Assembly: GCF_052324685.1 (NCBI RefSeq)
Contig: NW_027506876.1
Coordinates: forward strand, 1-64,000
Origin: Brachyhypopomus gauderio
Taxonomy: Eukaryota > Chordata > Actinopteri > Gymnotiformes > Hypopomidae
Length of the DNA: 64,000 bases
Direction: 5' to 3'
Part shown: in pieces, positions 1-64,000 of the stretch
Layout: each line of letters starts with the position of its first letter
How positions within the stretch are numbered: the first letter of the stretch is position 1
Notes under the pieces: model-generated
Told to the model about the DNA's origin: nothing
Database searches by the model: none
What the model saw: only the letters and a program-made list of their open reading frames with translations
Position numbers and translations under genes: made by a program

Positions 1-40
1 TACACGCGAAAGGTCCCTGGTTCGATACCAAGCAGAAACA
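1..40 (+). tRNA. tRNA-Val(TAC), 5' end outside window, A64
   Basis: Begins at anticodon base 34 and continues through position 73. A64 gives a C50-A64 mismatch in the T stem. Tail CTTCTTG. Confidence 0.85.
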
Positions 41-479
41 TGCTTCTTGATAGAATGGCAAACACACCACTGCTGTTTAGTGGTTTGTTGCCAGTGTAAA
101 GGCTATCAGGGAGCTCTTCCCTTTAGATCCTCAAAGTAAGCTGTCAGTCTCATGTGATAGATACAGGAATGTTCTAAATCGCCATGTACCTTGATAGCAG
201 TACTAATGCAGCCGGTTCAATCAAAATGAAACTCAGTGGAAACTTACCTGGTGCTTTGTCATGTTGTCTCCCAACGTAGAAAACTCATGCTACTCGGTTG
301 ATTTGTAGACATTTGTGTTATAAAGGGATCGAATGATGTCAACATTTGGGGTTTGGATGTGAATGTTTTGTCTTAAAGCAGAGTAGACCTACTGCTTAGC
401 CATTGTTGACATGATGACTTCCATGCTCTGATTGTATGAGGAAATGCCCACGAGAGATGTGCCCATTCAGACATGCAAG

Positions 480-552
480 GTTTCTGTAGTGTAGTGGTCA
501 TCACGTTCGCCTCACACGCGAAAGGTCCCTGGTTCGATACCAGGCAAAAACA
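480..552 (+). tRNA. tRNA-Val(CAC), A68 variant
   Basis: First full copy. Acceptor GTTTCTG pairs with CAAAAAC except C5-A68; D, anticodon (TTCGC/GCGAA) and T (CCTGG/CCAGG) stems pair; B box intact. TTTT at 557-560. Confidence 0.9.
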
Positions 553-991
553 TGCGTTTTGATAGAATGGCAAACACACCACTGCTGTTTAGTGGTTTGT
601 TGCCAGTGTAAAGGCTATCAGGGAGCTCTTCCCTTTAGATCCTCAAAGTAAGCTGTCAGTCTCATGTGATAGATACAGGAATGTTCTAAATCGCCATGTA
701 CCTTGATAGCAGTACTAATGCAGCCGGTTCAATCAAAATGAAAATCAGTGGAAACTTACCTGGTGCTTTGTCATGTTGTCTCCCAACGTAGAAAACTCAT
801 GCTACTCGGTTGATTTGTAGACGTTTGTGTTATAAAGGGATCGAATGATGTCAACATTTGGGGTTTGGATGTGAATGTTTTGTCTTAAAGCAGAGTAGAC
901 CTACTGCTTAGCCATTGTTGACATGATGACTTCCATGCTCTGATTGTATGAGGAAATGCCCACGAGAGATGTGCCCATTCAGACATGCAAG
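553..991. other. Representative inter-tRNA spacer (no gene seen)
   Basis: Typical of all spacers. In order after the tRNA: the tail that may hold a T run; a short stem-loop (571-599); a non-coding stretch with a TATAAA string; one TTTT (878-881) about 110 bp before the next tRNA; and a 5' flank ending CATGCAAG or CAAGCAAG at the tRNA start. Reading frames of about 60-80 codons on the minus strand overlap the tRNA and drift between copies, so they are not treated as genes. Confidence 0.85.
571..599 (+). other. Conserved stem-loop 3' of the tRNA (representative)
   Basis: CAAAC and CACT upstream pair with AGTGGTTTG downstream around a 7-nt loop GCTGTTT, with an ACAC bulge. It recurs about 18 nt after nearly every tRNA of the array; in 510-bp units the bulge is AC. 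There is no T tract after it, so it is not a simple terminator. Function unknown. Confidence 0.5.
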
Positions 992-1064
992 GTTTCTGTA
1001 GTGTAGTGGTCATCACGTTCGCCTCACACGCGAAAGGTCCCTGGTTCGATACCAGGCAAAAACA
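992..1064 (+). tRNA. tRNA-Val(CAC), A68 variant
   Basis: Same sequence as the copy at 480, including the C5-A68 mismatch and the TTTT tail GCGTTTTG found only in these two. Confidence 0.9.
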
Positions 1065-1503
1065 TGCGTTTTGATAGAATGGCAAACACACCACTGCTGT
1101 TTAGTGGTTTGTTGCCAGTGTAAAGGCCATCAGGGAGCTCTTCCCTTTAGATCCTCAAAGTAAGCTGTCAGTCTCATGTGATAGATACAGGAATGTTCTA
1201 AATCGCCATGTACCTTGATAGCAGTACTAATGCAGCCGGTTCAATCAAAATGAAACTCAGTGGAAACTTACCTGGTGCTTTGTCGTGTTGTCTCCCAACG
1301 TAGAAAACTCATGCTACTCGGTTGATTTGTAGACGTTTGTGTTATAAAGGGATCGAATGATGTCAACATTTGGGGTTTGGATGTGAATGTTTTGTCTTAA
1401 AGCAGAGTAGACCTACTGCTTAGCCATTGTTGACATGATGACTTCCATGCTCTGATTGTATGAGGAAATGCCCACGAGAGATGTGCCCATTCCGACATGC
1501 AAG

Positions 1504-1576
1504 GTTTCTGTAGTGTAGTGGTCATCACGTTCGCCTCACACGCGAAAGGTCCCTGGTTCGATACCAGGCAGAAACA
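1504..1576 (+). tRNA. tRNA-Val(CAC), intact
   Basis: Acceptor GTTTCTG/CAGAAAC and all other stems pair; U8, U33, C56 kept. Reference CAC sequence of the array. Tail CTTCTTG; following spacer lacks one CA (510-bp unit). Confidence 0.95.
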
Positions 1577-2013
1577 TGCTTCTTGATAGAATGACAAACA
1601 CCACTGCTGTTTAGTGGTTTGTTGCCAGTGTAAAGGCTATCAGGGAGCTCTTCCCTTTAGATCCTCAAAGTAAGCTGTCAGTCTCATGTGATCGATACAG
1701 GAATGTTCTAAATCGCCATGTACCTTGATAGCAGTACTAATGCAGCCGGTTCAATCAAAATGAAACTCAGTGGAAACTTGCCTGGTGCTTTGTCATGTTG
1801 TCTCCCAACGTAGAAAACTCATGCTACTCGGTTGATTTGTAGACGTTTGTGTTATAAAGGGATCGAATGATGTCAACATTTGGGGTTTGGATGTGAATGT
1901 TTTGTCTTAAAGCAGAGTAGACCTACTGCTTAGCCATTGTTGACATGATGACTTCCATGCTCTGATTGTATGAGGAAATGCCCACAAGAGATGTGCCCAT
2001 TCAGACATGCAAG

Positions 2014-2086
2014 GTTTCTGTAGTGTAGTGGTCATCACGTTCGCCTCACACGCGAAAGGTCCCTGGTTCGATACCAGGCAGAAACA
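2014..2086 (+). tRNA. tRNA-Val(CAC), intact
   Basis: Identical to the copy at 1504; 5' flank has the private marker CCACAAGAG shared with copies at 16342 and 18898. Tail CTTCTTG. Confidence 0.95.
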
Positions 2087-2523
2087 TGCTTCTTGATAGA
2101 ATGACAAACACCACTGCTGTTTAGTGGTTTGTTGCCAGTGTAAAGGCTATCAGGGAGCTCTTCCCTTTAGATCCTCAAAGTAAGCTGTCAGTATCATGTG
2201 ATCGATACAGGAATGTTCTAAATCGCCGCGTACCTTGATAGCAGTACTAATGCAGCCGGTTCAATCAAAATGAAACTCAGTGGAAACTTGCCTGGTGCTT
2301 TGTCATGTTGTCTCCCAACGTAGAAAACTCATGCTACTCGGTTGATTTGTAGACGTTTGTGTTATAAAGGGATCGAATGATGTCAACATTTGGGGTTTGG
2401 ATGTGAATGTTTTGTCTTAAAGCAGAGTAGACCTACTGCTTAGCCATTGTTGACATGATGACTTCCATGCTCTGATTGTATGAGGAAATGCCCACGAGAG
2501 ATGTGCCCATTCAGACAAGCAAG

Positions 2524-2596
2524 GTTTCTGTAGTGTAGTGGTCATCACTTTCGCCTTACACGCGAAAGGTCCCTGGTTCGATACCAAGCAGAAACA
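2524..2596 (+). tRNA. tRNA-Val(TAC), T26/A64 variant
   Basis: TAC on the same body; T at position 26 and C50-A64 mismatch in the T stem. Tail CTTCTTG. Confidence 0.87.
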
Positions 2597-3042
2597 TGCT
2601 TCTTGATAGAATGGCAAACACACCACTGCTGTTTAGTGGTTTGTTGCCAGTGTAAAGGCTATCAGGGAGCTCTTCCCTTTAGATCCTCAAAGTAAGCTGT
2701 CAGTCTCATGTGATAGATACAGGAATGTTCTAAATCGCCATGTACCTTGATAGCAGTACTAATGCAGCCGCTTCAATCAAAATGAAACTCAGTGGAAACT
2801 TACCTGGTGCTTTGTCATGTTGTCTCCCAACGTAGAAAACTCATGCTACTCGGTTGATTTGTAGACGTTTGTGTTATAAAGGGATCGAATGATGTCAACA
2901 TTTGGGGTTTGGATGTGAATGTTTTGTCTTAAAGCAGAGTAGACCTACTGCTTAGCCATTGTTGACATGATGACTTCCATGCTCTGATTGTATGAGGAAA
3001 TGCCCACGAGAGATGTGCCCATTCAGACAGGCAAGGTTTCTG

Positions 3043-3053
3043 TAGTGTAGTGG
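3043..3053 (+). promoter_or_regulatory. Pol III A box (representative, intact TAC copy)
   Basis: TAGTGTAGTGG at tRNA positions 8-19 fits the eukaryotic A-box pattern TRGYNNANNNGG. Present in nearly all copies; one class reads TAGTCTAGTGG. Confidence 0.85.
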
Positions 3054-3086
3054 TCATCACGTTCGCCTTACACGCGAAAGGTCCCT

Positions 3087-3097
3087 GGTTCGATACC
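3087..3097 (+). promoter_or_regulatory. Pol III B box (representative, intact TAC copy)
   Basis: GGTTCGATACC at tRNA positions 52-62 matches the TFIIIC-bound consensus GGTTCGANNCC. Variants in the array: GGTTTGATACC (T56), GTTTCGATACC (T53) and AGTTCGATACC (A52). Confidence 0.88.
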
Positions 3098-3547
3098 AGG
3101 CAGAAACATGCTTCTTGATAGAATGACAAACACACCACTGCTGTTTAGTGGTTTGTTGCCAGTGTAAAGGCTATCAGGGAGCTCTTCCCTTTAGATCCTC
3201 AAAGTAAGCTGTCAGTCTCATGTGATAGATACAGGAATGTTCTAAATCGCCATGTACCTTGATAGCAGTACTAATGCAGCCGGTTCAATCAAAATGAAAC
3301 TCAGTGGAAACTTACCTGGTGCTTTGTCATGTTGTCTCCCAACGTAGAAAACTCATGCTACTCGGTTGATTTGTAGACGTTTGTGTTATAAAGGTATCGA
3401 ATGATGTCAACATTTGGTGTATGGATGTGAATGTTTTGTCTTAAAGCAGAGTAGACCTACTGCTTAGCCATTGTTGACATGATGACTTCCATGCTCTGAT
3501 TGTATGAGAAAATGCCCACGAGAGATGTGCCCATTCAGTCAAGCAAG

Positions 3548-3620
3548 GTTTCTGTAGTCTAGTGGTCATCACGTTCGCCTTACATGCGAAAGGTCCCTGG
3601 TTTGATACCAGGCAGAAACA
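3548..3620 (+). tRNA. tRNA-Val(TAC), C12/T38/T56 variant
   Basis: C12 opposes C23 in the D stem; T56 replaces the invariant C of the T loop and B box and breaks the G19-C56 contact. Tail CTTCTTG. Likely impaired. Confidence 0.75.
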
Positions 3621-4059
3621 TGCTTCTTGATAGAATGACAAACACACCACTGCTGTTTAGTGGTTTGTTGCCAGTGTAAAGGCTATCAGGGAGCTCTTCC
3701 CTTTAGATCCTCAAAGTAAGCTGTCAGTCTCATGTGATAGATACAGGAATGTTCTAAATCGCCATGTACCTTGATAGCAGTACTAATGCAGCCGGTTCAA
3801 TCAAAATGAAACTCAGTGGAAACTTACCTGGTGCTTTGTCATGTTGTCTCCCAACGTAGAAAACTCATGCTACTCGGTTGATTTGTAGACGTTTGTGTTA
3901 TAAAGGTATCGAATGATGTCAACATTTGGTGTATGGATGTGAATGTTTTGTCTTAAAGCAGAGTAGACCTACTGCTTAGCCATTGTTGACATGATGACTT
4001 CCATGCTCTGATTGTATGAGAAAATGCCCACGAGAGATGTGCCCATTCAGTCAAGCAAG

Positions 4060-4132
4060 GTTTCTGTAGTCTAGTGGTCATCACGTTCGCCTTACATGCG
4101 AAAGGTCCCTGGTTTGATACCAGGCAAAAACA
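4060..4132 (+). tRNA. tRNA-Val(TAC), C12/T38/T56/A68 variant
   Basis: As the copy at 3548 plus the C5-A68 acceptor mismatch. T5 run at 4136-4140. Confidence 0.73.
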
Positions 4133-4135
4133 TGC

Positions 4136-4140
4136 TTTTT
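4136..4140 (+). terminator. Pol III T5 terminator (representative)
   Basis: TTTTT four bases after the tRNA 3' end. The same run follows 22 copies (stated in their entries); two further copies have TTTT. All others read CTTCTTG or a close variant here and have no T4 run until the TTTT about 325 bp downstream. Confidence 0.7.
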
Positions 4141-4571
4141 GATAGAATGGCAAACACACCACTGCTGTTTAGTGGTTTGTTGCCAGTGTAAAGGCTATCA
4201 GGGAGCTCTTCCCTTTAGATCCTCAAAGTAAGCTGTCAGTCTCATGTGATAGATACAGGAATGTTCTAAATCGCCATGTACCTTGATAGCAGTACTAATG
4301 CAGCCGGTTCAATCAAAATGAAACTCAGTGGAAACTTACCTGGTGCTTTGTCATGTTGTCTCCCAACGTAGAAAACTCATGCTACTCGGTTGATTTGTAG
4401 ACGTTTGTGTTATAAAGGTATCGAATGATGTCAACATTTGGTGTTTGGATGTGAATGTTTTGTCTTAAAGCAGAGTAGACCTACTGCTTAGCCATTGTCG
4501 ACATGATGACTTTCATGCTCTGATTGTATGAGGAAATGCCCACGAGAGATGTGCCCATTTAGACATGCAAG

Positions 4572-4644
4572 GTTTCTGTAGTGTAGTGGTCATCACGTTC
4601 GCCTTACACGCGACAGGTCCCTGGTTTGATACCATGCAGAAACA
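4572..4644 (+). tRNA. tRNA-Val(TAC), C43/T56/T64 variant
   Basis: Mismatches T27-C43 (anticodon stem) and C50-T64 (T stem), plus T56 in the B box. T5 run after the 3' end. Confidence 0.73.
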
Positions 4645-5083
4645 TGCTTTTTGATAGAATGGCAAACACACCACTGCTGTTTAGTGGTTTGTTGCCAGTG
4701 TAAAGGCTATCAGGGAGCTCTTCCCTTTAGGTCCTCAAAGTAAGCTGTCAGTCTCATGTGATAGATACAGGAATGTTCTAAATCGCCATGTACCTTGATA
4801 GCAGTACTAATGCAGCCGCTTCAATCAAAATGAAACTCAGTGGAAACTTACCTGGTGCTTTGTCATGTTGTCTCCCAACGTAGAAAACTCATGCTACTCG
4901 GTTGATTTGTAGACGTTTGTGTTATAAAGGGATCGAATGATGTCAACATTTGGGGTTTGGATGTGAATGTTTTGTCTTAAAGCAGAGTAGACCTACTGCT
5001 TAGCCATTGTTGACATGATGACTTCCATGCTCTGATTGTATGAGGAAATGCCCACGAGAGATGTGCCCATTCAGACAGGCAAG

Positions 5084-5156
5084 GTTTCTGTAGTGTAGTG
5101 GTCATCACGTTCGCCTTACACGCGAAAGGTCCCTGGTTCGATACCAGGCAGAAACA
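5084..5156 (+). tRNA. tRNA-Val(TAC), intact
   Basis: Matches the copy at 3036, with the same 5' flank GACAGGCAAG. Tail CTTCTTG. Confidence 0.95.
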
Positions 5157-5595
5157 TGCTTCTTGATAGAATGACAAACACACCACTGCTGTTTAGTGGT
5201 TTGTTGCCAGTGTAAAGGCTATCAGGGAGCTCTTCCCTTTAGATCCTCAAAGTAAGCTGTCAGTCTCATGTGATAGATACAGGAATGTTCTAAATCGCCA
5301 TGTACCTTGATAGCAGTACTAATGCAGCCGGTTCAATCAAAATGAAACTCAGTGGAAACTTACCTGGTGCTTTGTCATGTTGTCTCCCAACGTAGAAAAC
5401 TCATGCTACTCGGTTGATTTGTAGACGTTTGTGTTATAAAGGTATCGAATGATGTCAACATTTGGTGTATGGATGTGAATGTTTTGTCTTAAAGCAGAGT
5501 AGACCTACTGCTTAGCCATTGTTGACATGATGACTTCCATGCTCTGATTGTATGAGAAAATGCCCACGAGAGATGTGCCCATTCAGTCAAGCAAG

Positions 5596-5668
5596 GTTTC
5601 TGTAGTCTAGTGGTCATCACGTTCGCCTTACATGCGAAAGGTCCCTGGTTTGATACCAGGCAAAAACA
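5596..5668 (+). tRNA. tRNA-Val(TAC), C12/T38/T56/A68 variant
   Basis: D-stem, B-box and acceptor changes as at 4060; T5 tail. Twin at 12248 (offset 6652). Confidence 0.73.
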
Positions 5669-6107
5669 TGCTTTTTGATAGAATGGCAAACACACCACTG
5701 CTGTTTAGTGGTTTGTTGCCAGTGTAAAGGCTATCAGGGAGCTCTTCCCTTTAGATCCTCAAAGTAAGCTGTCAGTCTCATGTGATAGATACAGGAATGT
5801 TCTAAATCGCCATGTACCTTGATAGCAGTACTAATGCAGCCGGTTCAATCAAAATGAAACTCAGTGGAAACTTACCTGGTGCTTTGTCATGTTGTCTCCC
5901 AACGTAGAAAACTCATGCTACTCGGTTGATTTGTAGACGTTTGTGTTATAAAGGTATCGAATGATGTCAACATTTGGTGTTTGGATGTGAATGTTTTGTC
6001 TTAAAGCAGAGTAGACCTACTGCTTAGCCATTGTCGACATGATGACTTTCATGCTCTGATTGTATGAGGAAATGCCCACGAGAGATGTGCCCATTTAGAC
6101 ATGCAAG

Positions 6108-6180
6108 GTTTCTGTAGTGTAGTGGTCATCACGTTCGCCTTACACGCGACAGGTCCCTGGTTTGATACCATGCAGAAACA
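6108..6180 (+). tRNA. tRNA-Val(TAC), C43/T56/T64 variant
   Basis: Same variant as 4572, 1536 bp away; twin at 12760. T5 tail. Confidence 0.73.
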
Positions 6181-6619
6181 TGCTTTTTGATAGAATGGCA
6201 AACACACCACTGCTGTTTAGTGGTTTGTTGCCAGTGTAAAGGCTATCAGGGAGCTCTTCCCTTTAGGTCCTCAAAGTAAGCTGTCAGTCTCATGTGATAG
6301 ATACAGGAATGTTCTAAATCGCCATGTACCTTGATAGCAGTACTAATGCAGCCGCTTCAATCAAAATGAAACTCAGTGGAAACTTACCTGGTGCTTTGTC
6401 ATGTTGTCTCCCAACGTAGAAAACTCATGCTACTCGGTTGATTTGTAGACGTTTGTGTTATAAAGGGATCGAATGATGTCAACATTTGGGGTTTGGATGT
6501 GAATGTTTTGTCTTAAAGCAGAGTAGACCTACTGCTTAGCCATTGTTGACATGATGACTTCCATGCTCTGATTGTATGAGGAAATGCCCACGAGAGATGT
6601 GCCCATTCAGACAGGCAAG

Positions 6620-6692
6620 GTTTCTGTAGTGTAGTGGTCATCACGTTCGCCTTACACGCGAAAGGTCCCTGGTTCGATACCAGGCAGAAACA
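6620..6692 (+). tRNA. tRNA-Val(TAC), intact
   Basis: All stems pair; twin at 13272. Tail CTTCTTG. Confidence 0.95.
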
Positions 6693-7131
6693 TGCTTCTT
6701 GATAGAATGACAAACACACCACTGCTGTTTAGTGGTTTGTTGCCAGTGTAAAGGCTATCAGGGAGCTCTTCCCTTTAGATCCTCAAAGTAAGCTGTCAGT
6801 CTCATGTGATAGATACAGGAATGTTCTAAATCGCCATGTACCTTGATAGCAGTACTAATGCAGCCGGTTCAATCAAAATGAAACTCAGTGGAAACTTACC
6901 TGGTGCTTTGTCATGTTGTCTCCCAACGTAGAAAACTCATGCTACTCGGTTGATTTGTAGACGTTTGTGTTATAAAGGTATCGAATGATGTCAACATTTG
7001 GTGTATGGATGTGAATGTTTTGTCTTAAAGCAGAGTAGACCTACTGCTTAGCCATTGTTGACATGATGACTTCCATGCTCTGATTGTATGAGAAAATGCC
7101 CACGAGAGATGTGCCCATTCAGTCAAGCAAG

Positions 7132-7204
7132 GTTTCTGTAGTCTAGTGGTCATCACGTTCGCCTTACATGCGAAAGGTCCCTGGTTTGATACCAGGCAGA
7201 AACA
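7132..7204 (+). tRNA. tRNA-Val(TAC), C12/T38/T56 variant
   Basis: C12-C23 mismatch and T56; acceptor intact. Twin at 13784. Tail CTTCTTG. Confidence 0.75.
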
Positions 7205-7643
7205 TGCTTCTTGATAGAATGACAAACACACCACTGCTGTTTAGTGGTTTGTTGCCAGTGTAAAGGCTATCAGGGAGCTCTTCCCTTTAGATCCTCAAAG
7301 TAAGCTGTCAGTCTCATGTGATAGATACAGGAATGTTCTAAATCGCCATGTACCTTGATAGCAGTACTAATGCAGCCGGTTCAATCAAAATGAAACTCAG
7401 TGGAAACTTACCTGGTGCTTTGTCATGTTGTCTCCCAACGTAGAAAACTCATGCTACTCGGTTGATTTGTAGACGTTTGTGTTATAAAGGTATCGAATGA
7501 TGTCAACATTTGGTGTATGGATGTGAATGTTTTGTCTTAAAGCAGAGTAGACCTACTGCTTAGCCATTGTTGACATGATGACTTCCATGCTCTGATTGTA
7601 TGAGAAAATGCCCACGAGAGATGTGCCCATTCAGTCAAGCAAG

Positions 7644-7716
7644 GTTTCTGTAGTCTAGTGGTCATCACGTTCGCCTTACATGCGAAAGGTCCCTGGTTTG
7701 ATACCAGGCAAAAACA
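7644..7716 (+). tRNA. tRNA-Val(TAC), C12/T38/T56/A68 variant
   Basis: As 4060; twin at 14296. T5 tail. Confidence 0.73.
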
Positions 7717-8155
7717 TGCTTTTTGATAGAATGGCAAACACACCACTGCTGTTTAGTGGTTTGTTGCCAGTGTAAAGGCTATCAGGGAGCTCTTCCCTTT
7801 AGATCCTCAAAGTAAGCTGTCAGTCTCATGTGATAGATACAGGAATGTTCTAAATCGCCATGTACCTTGATAGCAGTACTAATGCAGCCGGTTCAATCAA
7901 AATGAAACTCAGTGGAAACTTACCTGGTGCTTTGTCATGTTGTCTCCCAACGTAGAAAACTCATGCTACTCGGTTGATTTGTAGACGTTTGTGTTATAAA
8001 GGTATCGAATGATGTCAACATTTGGTGTTTGGATGTGAATGTTTTGTCTTAAAGCAGAGTAGACCTACTGCTTAGCCATTGTCGACATGATGACTTCCAT
8101 GCTCTGATTGTATGAGGAAATGCCCACGAGAGATGTGCCCATTTAGACATGCAAG

Positions 8156-8228
8156 GTTTCTGTAGTGTAGTGGTCATCACGTTCGCCTTACACGCGACAG
8201 GTCCCTGGTTCGATACCATGCAGAAACA
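8156..8228 (+). tRNA. tRNA-Val(TAC), C43/T64 variant
   Basis: Like the copy at 6108 but with C56 and the B box intact; T27-C43 and C50-T64 mismatches remain. T5 tail. Twin at 14808. Confidence 0.82.
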
Positions 8229-8667
8229 TGCTTTTTGATAGAATGGCAAACACACCACTGCTGTTTAGTGGTTTGTTGCCAGTGTAAAGGCTATCAGGGA
8301 GCTCTTCCCTTTAGGTCCTCAAAGTAAGCTGTCAGTCTCATGTGATAGATACAGGAATGTTCTAAATCGCCATGTACCTTGATAGCAGTACTAATGCAGC
8401 CGGTTCAATCAAAATGAAACTCAGTGGAAACTTACCTTGTGCTTTGTCATGTTGTCTCCCAACGTAGAAAACTCATGCTACTCGGTTGATTTGTAGACGT
8501 TTGTGTTATAAAGGGATCGAATGATGTCAACATTTGGGGTTTGGATGTGAATGTTTTGTCTTAAAGCAGAGTAGACCTACTGCTTAGCCATTGTTGACAT
8601 GATGACTTCCATGCTCTGATTGTATGAGGACATGCCCACGAGAGATGTGCCCATTCAGACAAGCAAG

Positions 8668-8740
8668 GTTTCTGTAGTGTAGTGGTCATCACGTTCGCCT
8701 TACACGCGAAAGGTCCCTGGTTCGATACCAGGCAGAAACA
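8668..8740 (+). tRNA. tRNA-Val(TAC), intact
   Basis: All stems pair; 5' flank marker GAGGACATG. Twin at 15320. Tail CTTCTTG. Confidence 0.95.
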
Positions 8741-9179
8741 TGCTTCTTGATAGAATGACAAACACACCACTGCTGTTTAGTGGTTTGTTGCCAGTGTAAA
8801 GGCTATCAGGGAGCTCTTCCCTTTAGGTCCTCAAAGTAAGCTGTCAGTCTCATGTGATAGATACAGGAATGTTCTAAATCGCCATGTACCTTGATAGCAG
8901 TACTAATGCAGCCGGTTCAATCAAAATGAAACTCAGTGGAAACTTACCTGGTGCTTTGTCATGTTGTCTCCCAACGTAGAAAACTCATGCTACTCGGTTG
9001 ATTTGTAGACGTTTGTGTTATAAAGGGATCGAATGATGTCAACATTTGGGGTTTGGATGTGAATGTTTTGTCTTAAAGCAGAGTAGACCTACTGCTTAGC
9101 CATTGTTGACATGATGACTTCCATGCTCTGATTGTATGAGGACATGCCCACGAGAGATGTGCCCATTCAGACAAGCAAG

Positions 9180-9252
9180 GTTTCTGTAGTGTAGTGGTCA
9201 TCACGTTCGCCTTACACGCGAAAGGTCCCTGGTTCGATACCAGGCAGAAACA
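9180..9252 (+). tRNA. tRNA-Val(TAC), intact
   Basis: As 8668 with the same GAGGACATG flank; 510-bp unit. Twin at 15832. Confidence 0.95.
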
Positions 9253-9689
9253 TGCTTCTTGATAGAATGACAAACACCACTGCTGTTTAGTGGTTTGTTG
9301 CCAGTGTAAAGGCTATCAGGGAGCTCTTCCCTTTAGGTCCTCAAAGTAAGCTGTCAGTCTCATGTGATAGATACAGGAATGTTCTAAATCGCCATGTACC
9401 TTGATAGCAGTACTAATGCAGCCGCTTCAATCAAAATGAAACTCAGTGGAAACTTACCTGGTGCTTTGTCATGTTGTCTCCCAACGTAGAAAACTCATGC
9501 TACTCGGTTGATTTGTAGACGTTTGTGTTATAAAGGGATCGAATGATGTCAACATTTGGGGTTTGGATGTGAATGTTTTGTCTTAAAGCAGAGTAGACCT
9601 ACTGCTTAGCCATTGTTGACATGATGACTTCCATGCTCTGATTGTATGAGGAAATGCCCACGAGAGATGTGCCCATTCAGACAGGCAAG

Positions 9690-34721: not shown

Positions 34722-34729
34722 TCTTAAAC

Positions 34730-35504: not shown

Positions 35505-35512
35505 TCTTAAAC

Positions 35513-35655: not shown

Positions 35656-35658
35656 TTA

Positions 35659-54670: not shown

Positions 54671-55109
54671 TGCTTCTTGATAGAATGACATACACACCAC
54701 TGCTGTTTAGTTGTTTGTTGCCAGTGTAAAGGCTATCGGCGAACTCTTCCCTTTAGATCCTCAAAGTGAGCTGTCAGTCTCATGTGATTGATACAGGAAT
54801 GTTCTAAATCGCCATGTACCTTGATAGCAGTACTAATGCAGCCAGTTCAATCAAAATGAAACTCAGTGGAAACTTACCTAGTGCTTTGTCATGTTGTCTC
54901 CCAACATAGAAAACTCATGCTACTCGGTTGATTTGTAGACGTTTGTGTTATAAAGGGATCGAATGATGTCAACATTTGGTGTTTGGATGTGAATGTTTTG
55001 TCTTAAAGCAGAGTAGACCTACTGCTTAGCCATTGTTGACATGATGACTTCCATGCTATGATAGAATGAGGAAACGCCCACGAGAGATGTGCCCGTTCAG
55101 ACAAGCAAG

Positions 55110-55182
55110 GTTTCTGTAGTGTAGTGGTCATCACGTTCGCCTCACACGCAAAAGGTCCCTGGTTCGATACCAGGCAGAAACA
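55110..55182 (+). tRNA. tRNA-Val(CAC), A41 variant
   Basis: C29-A41 mismatch; flank CTATGATAGAATG. Twin at 61239. Confidence 0.83.
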
Positions 55183-55619
55183 TGCTTCTTGATAGAATGA
55201 CAAACACCACTGCTGTTTAGTGATTTGTTGCCAGTGTAAAGGCTATCGGGGAGCGCTTGCCTTTAGATCCTCAAAGTGAGCTGTCAGTCTCATGTGATCG
55301 ATACAGGAATGTTCTAAATCGCCATGTACCTTGATAGCAGTACTAATGCAGCCGGTTCAATCAAAATTACACTCCGTGGAAACTTACCTAGTGCTTTGTC
55401 ATGTTGTCTCCCAACGTAGAAAACTCATGCTACTCGGTTGATTTGTAGACGTTTGTGTTATAAAGGGATCGAATGATGTCAACATTTGGTGTTTGGATGT
55501 GAATGTTTTGTCTTAAAGCAGAGTAGACCTACTGCTTAGCCATTGTTGACATGATGACTTCCATGCTCTGATTGTATGAGGAAACGCCCACGAGAGATGT
55601 GCCCATTCAGACATGCAAG

Positions 55620-55692
55620 GTTTCTGTAGTGTAGTGGTCATCACGTTCGCCTCACACGCGAAAGGTCCCTAGTTCGATACCAGGCAGAAACA
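55620..55692 (+). tRNA. tRNA-Val(CAC), A52 variant
   Basis: A52-C62 mismatch; preceded by the AATTACACTCC spacer. Twin at 61749. Confidence 0.8.
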
Positions 55693-56131
55693 TGCTTCTT
55701 GATAGAATGACATACACACCACTGCTGTTTAGTGGTTTGTTGCCAGTGTAAAGGCTATCGGCGAGCTCTTCCCTTTAGATCCTCAAAGTGAGCTGTCAGT
55801 CTCATGTGATCGATACAGGAATGTTCTAAATCGCCATGTACCTTGATAGCAGTACTAATGCAGCCAGTTCAATCAAAATGAAACTCAGTGGAAACTTACC
55901 TAGTGCTTTGTCATGTTGTCTCCCAACATAGAAAACTCATGCTACTCGGTTGATTTGTAGACGTTTGTGTTATAAAGGTATCGAATGATGTCAACATTTG
56001 GTGTTTGGATGTGAATGTTTTGTCTTAAAGCAGAGTAGACCTACTGCTTAGCCATTGTTGACATGATGACTTCCATGCTCTGATTGTATGAGGAAACGCC
56101 CACGAGAGATGTGCCCATTCAGACATGCAAG

Positions 56132-56204
56132 GTTTCTGTAGTGTAGTGGTCATCACGTTCGCCTCACACGTGAAAGGTCCCTAGTTCGATACCAGGCAGA
56201 AACA
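56132..56204 (+). tRNA. tRNA-Val(CAC), T40/A52 variant
   Basis: G30-T40 wobble plus A52-C62 mismatch. First half of the 1022-bp dimer. Twin at 62261. Confidence 0.79.
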
Positions 56205-56643
56205 TGCTTCTTGATAGAATGACATACACACCACTGCTGTTTAGTGGTTTGTTGCCAGTGTAAAGGCTATCGGCGAACTCTTCCCTTTAGATCCTCAAAG
56301 TGAGCTGTCAGTCTCATGTGATCGATACAGGAATGTTCTAAATCGCCATGTACCTTGATAGCAGTACTAATGCAGCCAGTTCAATCAAAATGAAACTCAG
56401 TGGAAACTTACCTAGTGCTTTGTCATGTTGTCTCCCAACATAGAAAACTCATGCTACTCGGTTGATTTGTAGACGTTTGTGTTATAAAGGGATCGAATGA
56501 TGTCAACATTTGGTGTTTGGATGTGAATGTTTTGTCTTAAAGCAGAGTAGACCTACTGCTTAGCCATTGTTGACATGATGACTTCCATGCTCTGATTGTA
56601 TGAGGAAACGCCTACGAGAGATGTGCCCATTCAGACATGCAAG

Positions 56644-56716
56644 GTTTCTGTAGTGTAGTGGTCATCACGTTCGCCACACACGCGAAAGGTTCCTGGTTCG
56701 ATACCAGGCAGAAACA
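56644..56716 (+). tRNA. tRNA-Val(CAC), A33/T48 variant
   Basis: Invariant U33 before the anticodon is A, and C48 is T (Levitt-pair position). Stems and B box intact. Second half of the dimer. Twin at 62773. Confidence 0.78.
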
Positions 56717-57153
56717 TGCTTCTTGATAGAATGACAAACACCACTGCTGTTTAGTGGTTTGTTGCCAGTGTAAAGGCTATCGGGGAGCTCTTCCCTTTAG
56801 ATCCTCAAAGTGAGCTGTCAGTCTCATGTGATCGATACAGCAATGTTCTAATTCGCCATGTACCTTGATAGCAGTACTAATGCAGCCAGTTCAATCAAAA
56901 TGAAACTCAGTGGAAACTTACCTAGTGCTTTGTCATGTTGTCTCCCAACGTAGAAAACTCATGCTACTTGGTTGATTTGTAGACGTTTGTGTTATAAAGG
57001 GATCGAATGATGTCAACATTTGGTGTTTGGATGTGAATGTTTTGTCTTAAAGCAGAGTAGACCTACTGCTTAGCCATTGTTGACATGATGACTTCCATGC
57101 TCTGATTGTATGAGGAAACGCCCACGAGAGATGTGCCCATTCAGACATGCAAG

Positions 57154-57226
57154 GTTTCTGTAGTGTAGTGGTCATCACGTTCGCCTCACACGTGAAAGGT
57201 CCCTAGTTCGATACCAGGCAGAAACA
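57154..57226 (+). tRNA. tRNA-Val(CAC), T40/A52 variant
   Basis: Second dimer, first half. Twin at 63283. Confidence 0.79.
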
Positions 57227-57665
57227 TGCTTCTTGATAGAATGACATACACACCACTGCTGTTTAGTGGTTTGTTGCCAGTGTAAAGGCTATCGGCGAAC
57301 TCTTCCCTTTAGATCCTCAAAGTGAGCTGTCAGTCTCATGTGATCAATACAGGAATGTTCTAAATCGCCATGTACCTTGATAGCAGTACTAATGCAGCCA
57401 GTTCAATCAAAATGAAACTCAGTGGAAACTTACCTAGTGCTTTGTCATGTTGTCTCCCAACATAGAAAACTCATGCTACTCGGTTGATTTGTAGACGTTT
57501 GTGTTATAAAGGGATCGAATGATGTCAACATTTGGTGTTTGGATGTGAATGTTTTGTCTTAAAGCAGAGTAGACCTACTGCTTAGCCATTGTTGACATGA
57601 TGACTTCCATGCTCTGATTGTATGAGGAAACGCCTACGAGAGATGTGCCCATGCAGACATGCAAG

Positions 57666-57738
57666 GTTTCTGTAGTGTAGTGGTCATCACGTTCGCCACA
57701 CACGCGAAAGGTTCCTGGTTCGATACCAGGCAGAAACA
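57666..57738 (+). tRNA. tRNA-Val(CAC), A33/T48 variant
   Basis: Second dimer, second half; flank CCCATGCAGAC is private. Twin at 63795. Confidence 0.78.
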
Positions 57739-58175
57739 TGCTTCTTGATAGAATGACAAACACCACTGCTGTTTAGTGGTTTGTTGCCAGTGTAAAGGCT
57801 ATCGGGGAGCTCTTCCCTTTAGATCCTCAAAGTGAGCTGTCAGTCTCATGTGATCGATACAGCAATGTTCTAATTCGCCATGTACCTTGATAGCAGTACT
57901 AATGCAGCCAGTTCAATCAAAATGAAACTCAGTGGAAACTTACCTAGTGCTTTGTCATGTTGTCTCCCAACGTAGAAAACTCATGCTACTTGGTTGATTT
58001 GTAGACGTTTGTGTTATAAAGGGATCGAATGATGTCAACATTTGGTGTTTGGATGTGAATGTTTTGTCTTAAAGCAGAGTAGACCTACTGCTTAGCCATT
58101 GTTGACATGATGACTTCCATGCTCTGATTGTATGAGGAAACGCCCACGAGAGATGTGCCCATTCAGACATGCAAG

Positions 58176-58248
58176 GTTTCTGTAGTGTAGTGGTCATCAC
58201 GTTCGCCTCACACGTGAAAGGTCCCTAGTTCGATACCAGGCAGAAACA
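58176..58248 (+). tRNA. tRNA-Val(CAC), T40/A52 variant
   Basis: Third dimer, first half. Confidence 0.79.
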
Positions 58249-58687
58249 TGCTTCTTGATAGAATGACATACACACCACTGCTGTTTAGTGGTTTGTTGCC
58301 AGTGTAAAGGCTATCGGCGAACTCTTCCCTTTAGATCCTCAAAGTGAGCTGTCAGTCTCATGTGATCGATACAGGAATGTTCTAAATCGCCATGTACCTT
58401 GATAGCAGTACTAATGCAGCCAGTTCAATCAAAATGAAACTCAGTGGAAACTTACCTAGTGCTTTGTCATGTTGTCTCCCAACATAGAAAACTCATGCTA
58501 CTCGGTTGATTTGTAGACGTTTGTGTTATAAAGGGATCGAATGATGTCAACATTTGGTGTTTGGATGTGAATGTTTTGTCTTAAAGCAGAGTAGACCTAC
58601 TGCTTAGCCATTGTTGACATGATGACTTCCATGCTCTGATTGTATGAGGAAATGCCTACGAGAGATGTGCCCATTCAGACATGCAAG

Positions 58688-58760
58688 GTTTCTGTAGTGT
58701 AGTGGTCATCACGTTCGCCACACACGCGAAAGGTTCCTGGTTCGATACCAGGCAGAAACA
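58688..58760 (+). tRNA. tRNA-Val(CAC), A33/T48 variant
   Basis: Third dimer, second half; flank GAAATGCC rather than GAAACGCC. Confidence 0.78.
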
Positions 58761-59197
58761 TGCTTCTTGATAGAATGACAAACACCACTGCTGTTTAGTG
58801 GTTTGTTGCCAGTGTAAAGGCTATCGGGGAGCTCTTCCCTTTAGATCCTCAAAGTGAGCTGTCAGTCTCATGTGATCGATACAGCAATGTTCTAATTCGC
58901 CATGTACCTTGATAGCAGTACTAATGCAGCCAGTTCAATCAAAATGAAACTCAGTGGAAACTTACCTAGTGCTTTGTCATGTTGTCTCCCAACGTAGAAA
59001 ACTCATGCTACTTGGTTGATTTGTAGACGTTTGTGTTATAAAGGGATCGAATGATGTCAACATTTGGTGTTTGGATGTGAATGTTTTGTCTTAAAGCAGA
59101 GTAGACTTACTGCTTAGCCATTGTTGACATGATGACTTCCATGCTCTGATAGAATGAGGAAACGCCCACGAGAGATGTGACCGTTCAGACAAGCAAG

Positions 59198-59270
59198 GTT
59201 TCTGTAGTGTAGTGGTCATCACGTTTGCCTCACATCCGAAAGGTCCCTGGTTCGATACCAGGCAGAAACA
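59198..59270 (+). tRNA. tRNA-Val(CAC), T29/T38/C39 variant
   Basis: Twin of 53069; first gene of the second 6129-bp duplicate. Confidence 0.78.
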
Positions 59271-59707
59271 TGCTTCTTGATAGAATGACAAACACCACTG
59301 CTGTTTAGTGGTTTGTTGCCAGTGTAAAGGCTATCGGGGAGCTCTTCCCTTTAGATCCTCAAAGTGAGCTGTCAGTCTCATGTGATCGATACAGGAATGT
59401 TCTAAATCGCCATGTACCTTGATAGCAGTACTAATGCAGCCGGTTCAATCAAAATTACACTCCGTGGAAACTTACCTAGTGCTTTGTCATGTTGTCTCCC
59501 AACATAGAAAACTCATGCTACTCGGTTGATTTGTAGACGTTTGTCTTATAAAGGTATCGAATGATGTCAACATTTGGTGTTTCGATGTGAATGTTTTGTC
59601 TTAAAGCAGAGTAGACCTACTGCTTAGCCATTGTTGTAATGATGACTTCCATGCTCTGATAGAATGAGGAAACGCCCACGAGAGATGTGCCCGTTCAGAC
59701 AAGCAAG

Positions 59708-59780
59708 GTTTCTGTAGTGTAGTGGTCATCACGTTCGCCTCACACGCAAAAGGTCCCTGGTTCGATACCAGGCAGAAACA
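59708..59780 (+). tRNA. tRNA-Val(CAC), A41 variant
   Basis: Twin of 53579; C29-A41 mismatch. Confidence 0.83.
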
Positions 59781-60216
59781 TGCTTCTTGATAGAATGACA
59801 AACACCACTGCTGTTTAGTGGTTGTTGCCAGTGTTAAGGCTATCGGCGAGCTCTTCCCTTTAGATCCTCAAAGTGAGCTGTCAGTCTCATGTGATCGATA
59901 CAGGAATGTTCTAAATCGCCATGTACCTTGATAGCAGTACTAATGCAGCCAGTTCAATCAAAATGAAACTCAGTGGAAACGTACCTAGTGCTTTGTCATG
60001 TTGTCTCCCAACATAGAAAACTCATGCTACTCGGTTGATTTGTAGACGTTTGTGTTATAAAGGTATCGAATGATGTCAACATTTGGTGTTTGGATGTGAA
60101 TGTTTTGTCTTAAAGCAGAGTAGACCTACTGCTTAGCCATTGTTGACATGATGACTTCCATGCTCTGATTGTATGAGGAAACGCCCACGAGAGATGTGCC
60201 CATTCAGACATGCAAG

Positions 60217-60289
60217 GTTTCTGTAGTGTAGTGGTCATCACGTTCGCCTCACACGCAAAAGGTCCCTGGTTCGATACCAGGCAGAAACA
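60217..60289 (+). tRNA. tRNA-Val(CAC), A41 variant
   Basis: Twin of 54088; 509 bp from the previous gene. Confidence 0.83.
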
Positions 60290-60726
60290 TGCTTCTTGAT
60301 AGAATGACAAACACCACTGCTGTTTAGTGATTTGTTGCCAGTGTAAAGGCTATCGGGGAGCGCTTGCCTTTAGATCCTCAAAGTGAGCTGTCAGTCTCAT
60401 GTGATCGATACAGGAATGTTCTAAATCGCCATGTATCTTGATAGCAGTACTAATGCAGCCAGTTCAATCAAAATGAAACTCAGTGGAAACTTACCTAGTG
60501 CTTTGTCATGTTGTCTCCCAACATAGAAAACTCATGCTACTCGGTTGATTTGTAGACGTTTGTGTTATAAAGGTATCGAATGATGTCAACATTTGGTGTT
60601 TGGATGTGAATGTTTTGTCTTAAAGCAGAGTAGACCTACTGCTTAGCCATTGTTGACATGATGACTTCCATGCTCTGATTGTATGAGGAAACGCCCACGA
60701 GAGATGTGCCCATTCAGACATGCAAG

Positions 60727-60799
60727 GTTTCTGTAGTGTAGTGGTCATCACGTTCGCCTCACACGCGAAAGGTCCATAGTTCGATACCAGGCAGAAACA
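60727..60799 (+). tRNA. tRNA-Val(CAC), A50/A52 variant
   Basis: Twin of 54598; two T-stem mismatches. Confidence 0.74.
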
Positions 60800-61238
60800 T
60801 GCTTCTTGATAGAATGACATACACACCACTGCTGTTTAGTTGTTTGTTGCCAGTGTAAAGGCTATCGGCGAACTCTTCCCTTTAGATCCTCAAAGTGAGC
60901 TGTCAGTCTCATGTGATTGATACAGGAATGTTCTAAATCGCCATGTACCTTGATAGCAGTACTAATGCAGCCAGTTCAATCAAAATGAAACTCAGTGGAA
61001 ACTTACCTAGTGCTTTGTCATGTTGTCTCCCAACATAGAAAACTCATGCTACTCGGTTGATTTGTAGACGTTTGTGTTATAAAGGGATCGAATGATGTCA
61101 ACATTTGGTGTTTGGATGTGAATGTTTTGTCTTAAAGCAGAGTAGACCTACTGCTTAGCCATTGTTGACATGATGACTTCCATGCTATGATAGAATGAGG
61201 AAACGCCCACGAGAGATGTGCCCGTTCAGACAAGCAAG

Positions 61239-61311
61239 GTTTCTGTAGTGTAGTGGTCATCACGTTCGCCTCACACGCAAAAGGTCCCTGGTTCGATACC
61301 AGGCAGAAACA
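61239..61311 (+). tRNA. tRNA-Val(CAC), A41 variant
   Basis: Twin of 55110. Confidence 0.83.
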
Positions 61312-61748
61312 TGCTTCTTGATAGAATGACAAACACCACTGCTGTTTAGTGATTTGTTGCCAGTGTAAAGGCTATCGGGGAGCGCTTGCCTTTAGATCCT
61401 CAAAGTGAGCTGTCAGTCTCATGTGATCGATACAGGAATGTTCTAAATCGCCATGTACCTTGATAGCAGTACTAATGCAGCCGGTTCAATCAAAATTACA
61501 CTCCGTGGAAACTTACCTAGTGCTTTGTCATGTTGTCTCCCAACGTAGAAAACTCATGCTACTCGGTTGATTTGTAGACGTTTGTGTTATAAAGGGATCG
61601 AATGATGTCAACATTTGGTGTTTGGATGTGAATGTTTTGTCTTAAAGCAGAGTAGACCTACTGCTTAGCCATTGTTGACATGATGACTTCCATGCTCTGA
61701 TTGTATGAGGAAACGCCCACGAGAGATGTGCCCATTCAGACATGCAAG

Positions 61749-61821
61749 GTTTCTGTAGTGTAGTGGTCATCACGTTCGCCTCACACGCGAAAGGTCCCTA
61801 GTTCGATACCAGGCAGAAACA
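61749..61821 (+). tRNA. tRNA-Val(CAC), A52 variant
   Basis: Twin of 55620. Confidence 0.8.
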
Positions 61822-62260
61822 TGCTTCTTGATAGAATGACATACACACCACTGCTGTTTAGTGGTTTGTTGCCAGTGTAAAGGCTATCGGCGAGCTCTTC
61901 CCTTTAGATCCTCAAAGTGAGCTGTCAGTCTCATGTGATCGATACAGGAATGTTCTAAATCGCCATGTACCTTGATAGCAGTACTAATGCAGCCAGTTCA
62001 ATCAAAATGAAACTCAGTGGAAACTTACCTAGTGCTTTGTCATGTTGTCTCCCAACATAGAAAACTCATGCTACTCGGTTGATTTGTAGACGTTTGTGTT
62101 ATAAAGGTATCGAATGATGTCAACATTTGGTGTTTGGATGTGAATGTTTTGTCTTAAAGCAGAGTAGACCTACTGCTTAGCCATTGTTGACATGATGACT
62201 TCCATGCTCTGATTGTATGAGGAAACGCCCACGAGAGATGTGCCCATTCAGACATGCAAG

Positions 62261-62333
62261 GTTTCTGTAGTGTAGTGGTCATCACGTTCGCCTCACACGT
62301 GAAAGGTCCCTAGTTCGATACCAGGCAGAAACA
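62261..62333 (+). tRNA. tRNA-Val(CAC), T40/A52 variant
   Basis: Twin of 56132; dimer first half. Confidence 0.79.
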
Positions 62334-62772
62334 TGCTTCTTGATAGAATGACATACACACCACTGCTGTTTAGTGGTTTGTTGCCAGTGTAAAGGCTATC
62401 GGCGAACTCTTCCCTTTAGATCCTCAAAGTGAGCTGTCAGTCTCATGTGATCGATACAGGAATGTTCTAAATCGCCATGTACCTTGATAGCAGTACTAAT
62501 GCAGCCAGTTCAATCAAAATGAAACTCAGTGGAAACTTACCTAGTGCTTTGTCATGTTGTCTCCCAACATAGAAAACTCATGCTACTCGGTTGATTTGTA
62601 GACGTTTGTGTTATAAAGGGATCGAATGATGTCAACATTTGGTGTTTGGATGTGAATGTTTTGTCTTAAAGCAGAGTAGACCTACTGCTTAGCCATTGTT
62701 GACATGATGACTTCCATGCTCTGATTGTATGAGGAAACGCCTACGAGAGATGTGCCCATTCAGACATGCAAG

Positions 62773-62845
62773 GTTTCTGTAGTGTAGTGGTCATCACGTT
62801 CGCCACACACGCGAAAGGTTCCTGGTTCGATACCAGGCAGAAACA
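62773..62845 (+). tRNA. tRNA-Val(CAC), A33/T48 variant
   Basis: Twin of 56644; U33 replaced. Confidence 0.78.
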
Positions 62846-63282
62846 TGCTTCTTGATAGAATGACAAACACCACTGCTGTTTAGTGGTTTGTTGCCAGTGT
62901 AAAGGCTATCGGGGAGCTCTTCCCTTTAGATCCTCAAAGTGAGCTGTCAGTCTCATGTGATCGATACAGCAATGTTCTAATTCGCCATGTACCTTGATAG
63001 CAGTACTAATGCAGCCAGTTCAATCAAAATGAAACTCAGTGGAAACTTACCTAGTGCTTTGTCATGTTGTCTCCCAACGTAGAAAACTCATGCTACTTGG
63101 TTGATTTGTAGACGTTTGTGTTATAAAGGGATCGAATGATGTCAACATTTGGTGTTTGGATGTGAATGTTTTGTCTTAAAGCAGAGTAGACCTACTGCTT
63201 AGCCATTGTTGACATGATGACTTCCATGCTCTGATTGTATGAGGAAACGCCCACGAGAGATGTGCCCATTCAGACATGCAAG

Positions 63283-63355
63283 GTTTCTGTAGTGTAGTGG
63301 TCATCACGTTCGCCTCACACGTGAAAGGTCCCTAGTTCGATACCAGGCAGAAACA
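63283..63355 (+). tRNA. tRNA-Val(CAC), T40/A52 variant
   Basis: Twin of 57154. Confidence 0.79.
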
Positions 63356-63794
63356 TGCTTCTTGATAGAATGACATACACACCACTGCTGTTTAGTGGTT
63401 TGTTGCCAGTGTAAAGGCTATCGGCGAACTCTTCCCTTTAGATCCTCAAAGTGAGCTGTCAGTCTCATGTGATCGATACAGGAATGTTCTAAATCGCCAT
63501 GTACCTTGATAGCAGTACTAATGCAGCCAGTTCAATCAAAATGAAACTCAGTGGAAACTTACCTAGTGCTTTGTCATGTTGTCTCCCAACATAGAAAACT
63601 CATGCTACTCGGTTGATTTGTAGACGTTTGTGTTATAAAGGGATCGAATGATGTCAACATTTGGTGTTTGGATGTGAATGTTTTGTCTTAAAGCAGAGTA
63701 GACCTACTGCTTAGCCATTGTTGACATGATGACTTCCATGCTCTGATTGTATGAGGAAACGCCTACGAGAGATGTGCCCATTCAGACATGCAAG

Positions 63795-63867
63795 GTTTCT
63801 GTAGTGTAGTGGTCATCATGTTCGCCACACACGCGAAAGGTTCCTGGTTCGATACCAGGCAGAAACA
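63795..63867 (+). tRNA. tRNA-Val(CAC), T25/A33/T48 variant
   Basis: Twin of 57666 with an added G10-T25 wobble. Last gene; the window ends 133 bp into the next spacer. Confidence 0.77.
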
Positions 63868-64000
63868 TGCTTCTTGATAGAATGACAAACACCACTGCTG
63901 TTTAGTGGTTTGTTGCCAGTGTAAAGGCTACCGGGGAGCTCTTCCCTTTAGATCCTCAAAGTGAGCTGTCAGTCTCATGTGATCGATACAGCAATGTTCT

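What the first reader, a model, noticed from the sequence alone, without database searches (positions are those of the whole stretch)
1..64000. A 61.5-kb satellite made of about 121 tRNA-Val genes
One isoacceptor family is amplified head-to-tail at one gene per 509-512 bp, far beyond a usual tRNA cluster. Known precedents are tandem tDNA repeats such as the Xenopus 3.18-kb tDNA unit and large tRNA expansions in some fish. Here the unit is short and single-gene, so the array is at once a satellite and a potential pol III gene bank; it could also act as heterochromatin, an insulator or a silenced reservoir.
Basis: partly seen in the sequence, partly recalled or inferred. Interest (0 to 1): 0.85.

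Follow-up and report, generated by a model that had tools for sequence, protein, structure and literature searches.

The report
Near-megabase valine tRNA gene array
A fish chromosome carries roughly 1,600 head-to-tail copies of a valine tRNA gene; they spread like junk satellite DNA, but comparison with an older sister array suggests the tRNA itself was kept working, possibly as a supply for eggs.

Summary
Confirmed and larger than reported. The window is wall-to-wall 510/512-bp units, each with one tRNA-Val: 117 ARAGORN genes plus four damaged or partial copies. The host is a fish. The window starts contig C32; sampling shows the array reaching C32:526.8 kb and continuing, in register, on C96 to at least 402 kb: about 1,650 copies by extrapolation. 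All three valine anticodons occur, in zones.

It behaves both as a satellite and as a tRNA family. Satellite side: recent block duplications; only 150 of 356 full-length copies sampled on C32 keep an intact cloverleaf; none of those has a T4 terminator, whereas 5 of 5 dispersed Val genes do. tRNA side: against an older sister array on C36 the consensus differs at 0 of 73 tRNA sites but 70 of 435 spacer sites.

Best reading (inferred, no expression data): a separate, germline or oocyte-type tRNA-Val family, silent in soma, amplified by unequal exchange and carrying many dead copies. This fits zebrafish, where egg tRNAs come from repetitive regions (PMC11417395). Main rival: an inert pseudogene satellite.

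The parts
1..64000 (+). Tandem array of 510/512-bp units, one tRNA-Val per unit; part of an array that reaches C32:526.8 kb in samples and continues on contig C96
1..40 (+). 3' part (bases 34-73) of a tRNA-Val-TAC cut by the contig start; contig C96 (reverse strand) stops at base 33 of such a tRNA
1..50500 (+). Mixed TAC/CAC zone: 94 tRNA hits, TAC 65, CAC 25, 4 partial; 39 with intact fold, 24 with T4+ downstream, 0 with both
50501..64000 (+). Mostly CAC zone: 27 tRNA hits, CAC 25, TAC 1, AAC 1; 1 intact, 0 with T4+
1504..1576 (+). Representative intact tRNA-Val-CAC copy
1577..1589 (+). Representative 3' flank TGCTTCTTGATAG (interrupted T run, no T4)
1900..1903 (+). First TTTT downstream of that tRNA, about 325 nt on; candidate read-through terminator
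34246..36808 (+). tRNA-Val-CAC copy split in its anticodon loop by a transposon
34284..36765 (.). 2,482-bp hAT-type insertion, 8-bp target duplication CCTCACAC, imperfect terminal repeats TAGTGTTG..., weak BED-finger remnant on the - strand
34730..35504 (.). 775-bp hAT-type element nested in the first, 8-bp target duplication TCTTAAAC
37758..37814 (+). tRNA copy with a 16-bp internal deletion
38764..38820 (+). tRNA copy with the same 16-bp deletion, two units on
53069..57665 (+). Nine-unit block duplicated at 59198-63794 (4 differences in all)
59198..63794 (+). Second copy of the nine-unit block

Best explanation
The window lies inside one array of about 0.93 Mb of a tRNA-Val family that differs in sequence from the few dispersed Val genes of the same fish. 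Units multiply and homogenise in blocks, as expected from unequal exchange, so the DNA evolves as a satellite (shown). The tRNA body was nevertheless held constant while spacers diverged, so the family was under tRNA-level selection at least until recently (shown for one sister array). I infer that it works as an oocyte or early-embryo tRNA-Val bank: closed and methylated in soma and sperm, opened in the oocyte, with a large excess of tolerated dead copies. The missing T4 terminator implies that transcripts of intact copies would rely on a weak TTCTT stop or read on to a TTTT about 325 nt downstream and need 3' trimming (inferred).
For: Consensus of 259 main-array units (all C32) against 10 units of the older C36 array: 0 of 73 tRNA differences against 70 of 435 in spacer, p=1.2e-5; dxy 0.047 against 0.193; diversity inside C36 0.044 in tRNA against 0.149 in spacer; fixed/polymorphic sites 0/44 against 19/169, p=0.028. 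The whole cloverleaf, not only A and B boxes, is unchanged. Array tRNA against the dispersed C4 Val-CAC gene: 6 differences, 4 of which form two compensated stem pairs, 6:67 and 51:63. Variable non-CpG sites are denser at the tRNA and its flanks (83 of 174) than in far spacer (86 of 286), p=2e-4; the 5' flank has also diverged fastest between arrays (21 of 52 against 39 of 312, p=5.7e-6). That resembles the transcription-associated mutation described around active tRNA genes (passage of PMC8113476). In the C96 sample 18 of 25 copies are intact. Precedent: zebrafish isodecoders of eggs and early embryos lie in highly repetitive regions, late ones in isolated genes (PMC11417395, section 20 read); Xenopus has oocyte and somatic tRNA gene sets (passage of PMC3565088). 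Only 5 dispersed AAC/CAC Val genes match exactly over the 5' 33 bases.
Against: No expression, chromatin or methylation data. 206 of 356 full-length C32 copies fail the fold or invariant-base test. 0 of 150 intact C32 copies and 0 of 18 intact C96 copies have T4 within 25 nt; 5 of 5 dispersed genes do. Within the main array the tRNA is not more conserved than the spacer (pi 0.045 against 0.033). The mutation peak is modest: tRNA against whole spacer p=0.0098 overall, but 0.043 in the window, 0.057 at 64-160 kb and 0.49 beyond 160 kb; the 3' flank has not diverged faster between arrays (10 of 71, p=0.70). The constraint result rests on one sister array of 10 complete units, found through one exactly matching copy. 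Zebrafish tRNA clusters on chromosomes 4, 8 and 3 are nearly fully methylated in embryos and tRNA level does not follow gene number there (PMC11574265, passages).
Confidence: 0.45

Rival explanations
1. Inert pseudogene satellite: a once functional tRNA-Val gene was caught in a tandem expansion, the array is now heterochromatic and never makes tRNA; its persistence is due to unequal exchange alone.
For: 206 of 356 full-length C32 copies broken and no sampled intact C32 copy with T4; tRNA part more variable than spacer within the main array; CpG hypermutability 14 of 24 against 21 of 198 sites, p=3e-7; hAT-type elements and a reverse transcriptase frame inside the array region; zebrafish clusters largely methylated.
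Against: No consensus change in 73 tRNA sites while 70 of 435 spacer sites changed between arrays; compensated stem changes against the dispersed gene; 18 of 25 intact copies in the C96 sample.
Confidence: 0.38
2. A chromatin structure: dense TFIIIC sites act as insulator, boundary or heterochromatin seed, with tRNA output irrelevant.
For: 267 of 356 full-length C32 copies keep both A- and B-box consensus, more than the 150 that keep the fold; a human tRNA tandem repeat binds the insulator protein CTCF (start of abstract of PMC4041453 in the listing).
Against: Acceptor and anticodon stems are unchanged between array consensuses as well as the boxes, which a promoter-only role does not need.
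Confidence: 0.08
3. A tandem form of a Helenus-type short LTR element (TRIM) with a tRNA-Val sequence in its LTR, as reported for LTR-11_DR in zebrafish.
For: Fish Helenus LTRs are aligned with tRNA-Val-CAC, and LTR-11_DR has 5,575 LTR copies and forms tandem arrays (PMC10886601, sections and passages).
Against: On contigs C1-C31 the exact tRNA core has 5 hits, all dispersed Val genes, and the spacer motif has none. Helenus tRNA parts are said not to support tRNA function; here 150 of 356 keep the fold.
Confidence: 0.07
4. Assembly artefact: a short array expanded by the assembler.
For: The assembly is cut inside the array.
Against: 78 distinct units of 118, ordered anticodon zones, private variants, transposon insertions, in-register meeting of C96 and C32. 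Read depth could not be checked.
Confidence: 0.02

Closest known systems
Zebrafish repetitive tRNA clusters (chromosome 4 and others), linked to maternal isodecoders (PMC11417395, PMC11574265)
   Same: Fish; thousands of tRNA genes in repetitive regions, large clusters nearly fully methylated in embryos; array isodecoder differs from the isolated genes
   Different: Here one Val family, one 512-bp unit, head-to-tail over about 0.93 Mb; maternal expression not tested
Amphibian oocyte-type pol III gene families (Xenopus oocyte 5S and tRNA, newt tRNA clusters; passages of PMC3565088)
   Same: Large clustered family beside a small one
   Different: Expression of this array is unknown; different tRNA
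Entamoeba tRNA gene arrays (named in passages of PMC2888827)
   Same: Tandem tRNA units
   Different: Recalled, not checked: Entamoeba units hold one to several tRNAs and are the cell's working genes; no relation by descent
Human 1q23.3 tRNA VNTR (PMC4041453, start of abstract in the listing only)
   Same: Tandem tRNA repeat, variable in copy number
   Different: 7.3-kb unit, 9-43 copies per allele
Arabidopsis SYY tRNA cluster (PMC12308677, abstract)
   Same: Tandem tRNAs, silent in most tissues, active in one tissue despite high DNA methylation
   Different: Plant, Ser/Tyr tRNAs
Helenus TRIM LTR-11_DR (PMC10886601, sections and passages)
   Same: tRNA-Val-like sequence, tandem arrays in fish
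   Different: LTR element with many copies and a tRNA part said not to be functional

Membership tests
Functional eukaryotic tRNA gene | Intact cloverleaf and invariant bases | tested here: met
   Met by a part of the copies: 40 of 119 in the window, 150 of 356 full-length on C32, 18 of 25 on C96, 5 of 10 on C36
Functional eukaryotic tRNA gene | A and B boxes | tested here: met
   267 of 356 full-length C32 copies keep both
Functional eukaryotic tRNA gene | Oligo-T terminator (T4+) shortly downstream | tested here: not met
   24 of 372 hits on C32, none of them intact; 0 of 25 on C96; 1 of 10 on C36, and that copy is intact. Dispersed genes 5 of 5 (read)
Functional eukaryotic tRNA gene | Transcribed and charged | not testable with these tools
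   No RNA data
Satellite DNA | Long head-to-tail array of near-identical units homogenised by exchange | tested here: met
   sampled extent about 0.93 Mb over two contigs
Maternal-type repetitive tRNA cluster | Array isodecoder distinct from dispersed genes | tested here: met
   6 differences from the C4 gene, 9 from the AAC genes; the C4-gene allele at the six sites occurs in 0 of 279 units except 1 at site 59 (uncorrected unit set)
Maternal-type repetitive tRNA cluster | Present in eggs, replaced later | not testable with these tools
   No expression data for this species
Helenus TRIM | Dispersed copies with target duplications | tested here: not met
   No array-type core or spacer motif on contigs C1-C31 at exact match; places after the first 100 listed were not seen, and diverged copies would be missed
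Helenus TRIM | Two LTRs, primer-binding site and polypurine tract | not tested
   Only looked at by eye; no clear match noticed

The most novel reading that the evidence does not exclude
A whole egg-specific valine supply: one tRNA body amplified about 1,650 times, its wobble base diversified in zones into all three Val anticodons (AAC, CAC, TAC), transcribed in oocytes from otherwise methylated chromatin through a deliberately weak TTCTT stop, and kept functional as a family although most copies may die.
Probability: 0.25. Interest if true: 0.8.

Novelty: new variant of a known kind. Interest (0 to 1): 0.6.

Why it matters
It gives a clean test case for a dual tRNA system in fish: one array family with six diagnostic bases against the five dispersed AAC/CAC genes found, so egg and somatic origin could be told apart read by read. 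It also shows how a gene family can turn into a satellite while selection still sees the gene, and how anticodons shift inside an array.

Tried and rejected
Rejected: 'tRNA simply not conserved'. Within the window the tRNA is more variable than the spacer, which first looked like a dead satellite; the C36 comparison reversed this for the longer term.

Withdrawn numbers: searches used 20 units (of 279) with a partial tRNA hit, one of them running into the hAT insert, which inflated tRNA variation (1.15 against 0.45 alleles per site). With these dropped it is 0.74 against 0.41 (259 units). Searches compared C36 with a mixed set that was not filtered for this; one search repeats it on the 259 units. 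The fixed/polymorphic test weakened from p=0.0025 to 0.028. One search counted defects with a wrong invariant position (19); one search replaces it. One search found only 103 starts and 89 usable units with a strict pattern; one search replaces it.

Rejected: a Dada transposon as the insert. Dada-tV elements insert in the anticodon arm of tRNA-Val and other tRNAs, and Dada makes 6-7-bp duplications (PMC8869645, passages); here the duplication is 8 bp, which I recall as typical of hAT, though the arm is the same. Pfam support is weak (zf-BED 15.3 bits, cut-off 20.6; one of seven frames).

Rejected: gene conversion from dispersed Val genes as source of tRNA variants. No clear strand asymmetry of changes was seen (uncorrected set).

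Led nowhere: Rfam found nothing but tRNA above its cut-offs (one 1.3-kb stretch). Eight paper searches listed no report of a single-family Val array of this kind that I recognised; listings are capped and the library lacks most subscription papers.

Not answered: genome searches for an intact 3' half with T5 and for a conventional Val-TAC gene with up to 3 mismatches. The exact version of the latter gave 0 hits.
Full report
WHAT IS THERE. The window is a head-to-tail array of 510/512-bp units on the + strand, each with one tRNA-Val. Units differ by 2.4% on average (89 of the units) and 78 of 118 are distinct. Rfam scores the three copies given to it at 55.7-67.7 bits.

HOST AND EXTENT. The genome held for the window has 796.5 Mb in 840 contigs. 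It is a fish: 150 scored matches to FISNA, a domain that I recall as fish-specific, with none in the 14 control genomes. The window is the first 64 kb of contig C32 (2.84 Mb). I sampled 20 further 10-kb pieces of C32; the stretches between them were not read. Units, all on the + strand, occur in 16 of the 17 pieces that start between 64 and 522 kb (some of these 16 only in part); the piece at 294-304 kb has none and carries a 500-aa frame with a reverse transcriptase domain (123 bits). The array proper ends at C32:526.8 kb with decayed units; three short matches lie near 536-538 kb, and the pieces at 564 and 594 kb have none. On C96 (621 kb) the array lies on the - strand in all 9 sampled pieces from 1 to 402 kb and in none of 5 from 430 kb on. 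The reverse strand of C96 stops at tRNA base 33 and C32 starts at base 34. By chance two ends would meet in register about once in 512, so I take them as one array of about 0.93 Mb (inference). Extrapolated copies: about 857 on C32 (372 hits in 228.8 kb sampled) and 790-840 on C96 (length divided by 511).

ANTICODON ZONES. Of the C32 hits, the first 50.5 kb hold TAC 65 and CAC 25 of 94; 50.5-160 kb hold CAC 80 and AAC 20 of 103; beyond 160 kb AAC are 157 of 175. Genome-wide, exact 35-base cores number 361 forward and 498 reverse, dispersed genes included; AAC 252/17, TAC 41/139, leaving about 65/340 for CAC. Only the first 100 places of each search are listed, so the share of contigs after C96 is unknown. 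The commonest TAC, AAC and intact CAC copies differ only at the wobble base, so I infer that the anticodon changed inside the family.

SATELLITE BEHAVIOUR. Blocks of units are duplicated: 9 units at distance 12 with 4 differences, 7 units at distance 13 with 2. From about 144 kb on, spacings of 710 and 908 bp appear, which fit one or two extra copies of a 198-bp spacer segment. hAT-type elements with 8-bp target duplications, one nested in the other, split a tRNA at 34284-36765.

STATE OF THE tRNAs. I scored stem pairs and invariant bases. Window: 40 of 119 intact, 24 with T4+ within 25 nt, none with both. All C32 samples: 372 hits, 356 full-length, 150 intact, 24 with T4+, none with both. C96: 18 of 25 intact, 0 with T4. 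Older C36 array: 5 of 10 intact, one of these with TTTTT. By contrast the five dispersed Val genes found (C1, C4, two on C16, C19) have an intact fold (two distinct sequences) and T4+ within 25 nt (read; search). The usual 3' flank in the array is TGCTTCTTGATAG, with the next TTTT about 325 nt on. Four T residues suffice for human pol III, and read-through is common in human cells (passages of PMC5356446).

CONSTRAINT. On C36 an older array of the same family was found through one exact TAC match; 9 kb around it was fetched, with 10 complete units and a broken end unit. Against 259 clean C32 units the consensus differs at 0 of 73 tRNA sites and 70 of 435 spacer sites, p=1.2e-5; the tRNA is the 4th most conserved of 512 circular 73-base windows. 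Inside C36 the tRNA also varies less than the spacer (0.044 against 0.149). Fixed against polymorphic sites: 0/44 in tRNA, 19/169 in spacer, p=0.028. Against the dispersed C4 Val-CAC gene the array tRNA has six changes; four of them make two compensated pairs, all four at CpG sites of the C4 gene. So the founder and the family were held to a working cloverleaf, while single copies in the young array are free to decay (pi 0.045 in tRNA against 0.033 in spacer).

MUTATION PATTERN. In the 259 units, non-CpG sites vary at 32 of 61 in the tRNA, 51 of 113 in flanks and 86 of 286 in far spacer. The 5' flank has also diverged most between arrays (21 of 52 against 39 of 312 consensus sites); the 3' flank has not (10 of 71, p=0.70). 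This looks like mutation focused on a transcribed tRNA, but it is modest, differs between zones, counts related copies and could have other causes. In the window CpG sites change more often (14 of 24 against 21 of 198), which suggests germline methylation.

INTERPRETATION. The two faces fit one model: a distinct tRNA-Val family amplified as a satellite, with selection acting on the family rather than on each copy. In zebrafish, egg and early-embryo isodecoders come from highly repetitive regions and later ones from isolated genes (PMC11417395 section 20), while large clusters, chromosome 4 above all, are methylated in embryos (PMC11574265 passages). Amphibians have oocyte-type 5S and tRNA gene sets (passages of PMC3565088). 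I therefore favour an oocyte-type Val bank, at 0.45, over an inert satellite, at 0.38. No expression data exist here, so the choice is open.

NOVELTY. Large fish tRNA clusters and tandem tRNA arrays are known. A near-megabase array of one Val body, with all three Val anticodons in zones and no standard terminators, I did not find in print in the searches, whose listings are capped and cover only open-licence papers.

CHECK. On the second look I corrected the broken fraction (206 of 356, 58%), the rank of the tRNA window, the zone counts, the split-tRNA end and the telling of repeated searches, and confirmed the reverse transcriptase frame.

Noticed in passing
L012-L025 (C32:144-527 kb): 710- and 908-bp spacings fit one or two extra copies of a 198-bp spacer segment.
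   Followed up: partly
L017 (C32:294001-304000), 8364-9866 -: A 500-aa open frame with a reverse transcriptase domain (RVT_1, 123 bits) in a 10-kb piece without array units.
   Followed up: partly
L021 5510-5582 and L025 4400-4472: Two copies have anticodon AAA (phenylalanine) on the Val body.
   Followed up: no
window 34809-35403, within the nested hAT: A third, older element seems nested inside (ends TAGGGATG and CATCCCTA); target duplication not clear.
   Followed up: no
unit positions 289-304, e.g. about window 1790-1805: A 16-bp stretch of the spacer (around TGTCATGTTGTCTC) hardly differs between the main and C36 arrays (uncorrected set); with many bins this may be chance.
   Followed up: partly
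G000 contigs C18, C67, C1, C53 and others: 150 scored FISNA matches, many clustered, so this fish seems to have a large NLR expansion.
   Followed up: no
G000 whole genome: Only five dispersed AAC/CAC Val genes by exact 5' match and no exact hit to a recalled human-type Val-TAC core; whether a conventional Val-TAC gene exists was not settled.
   Followed up: partly
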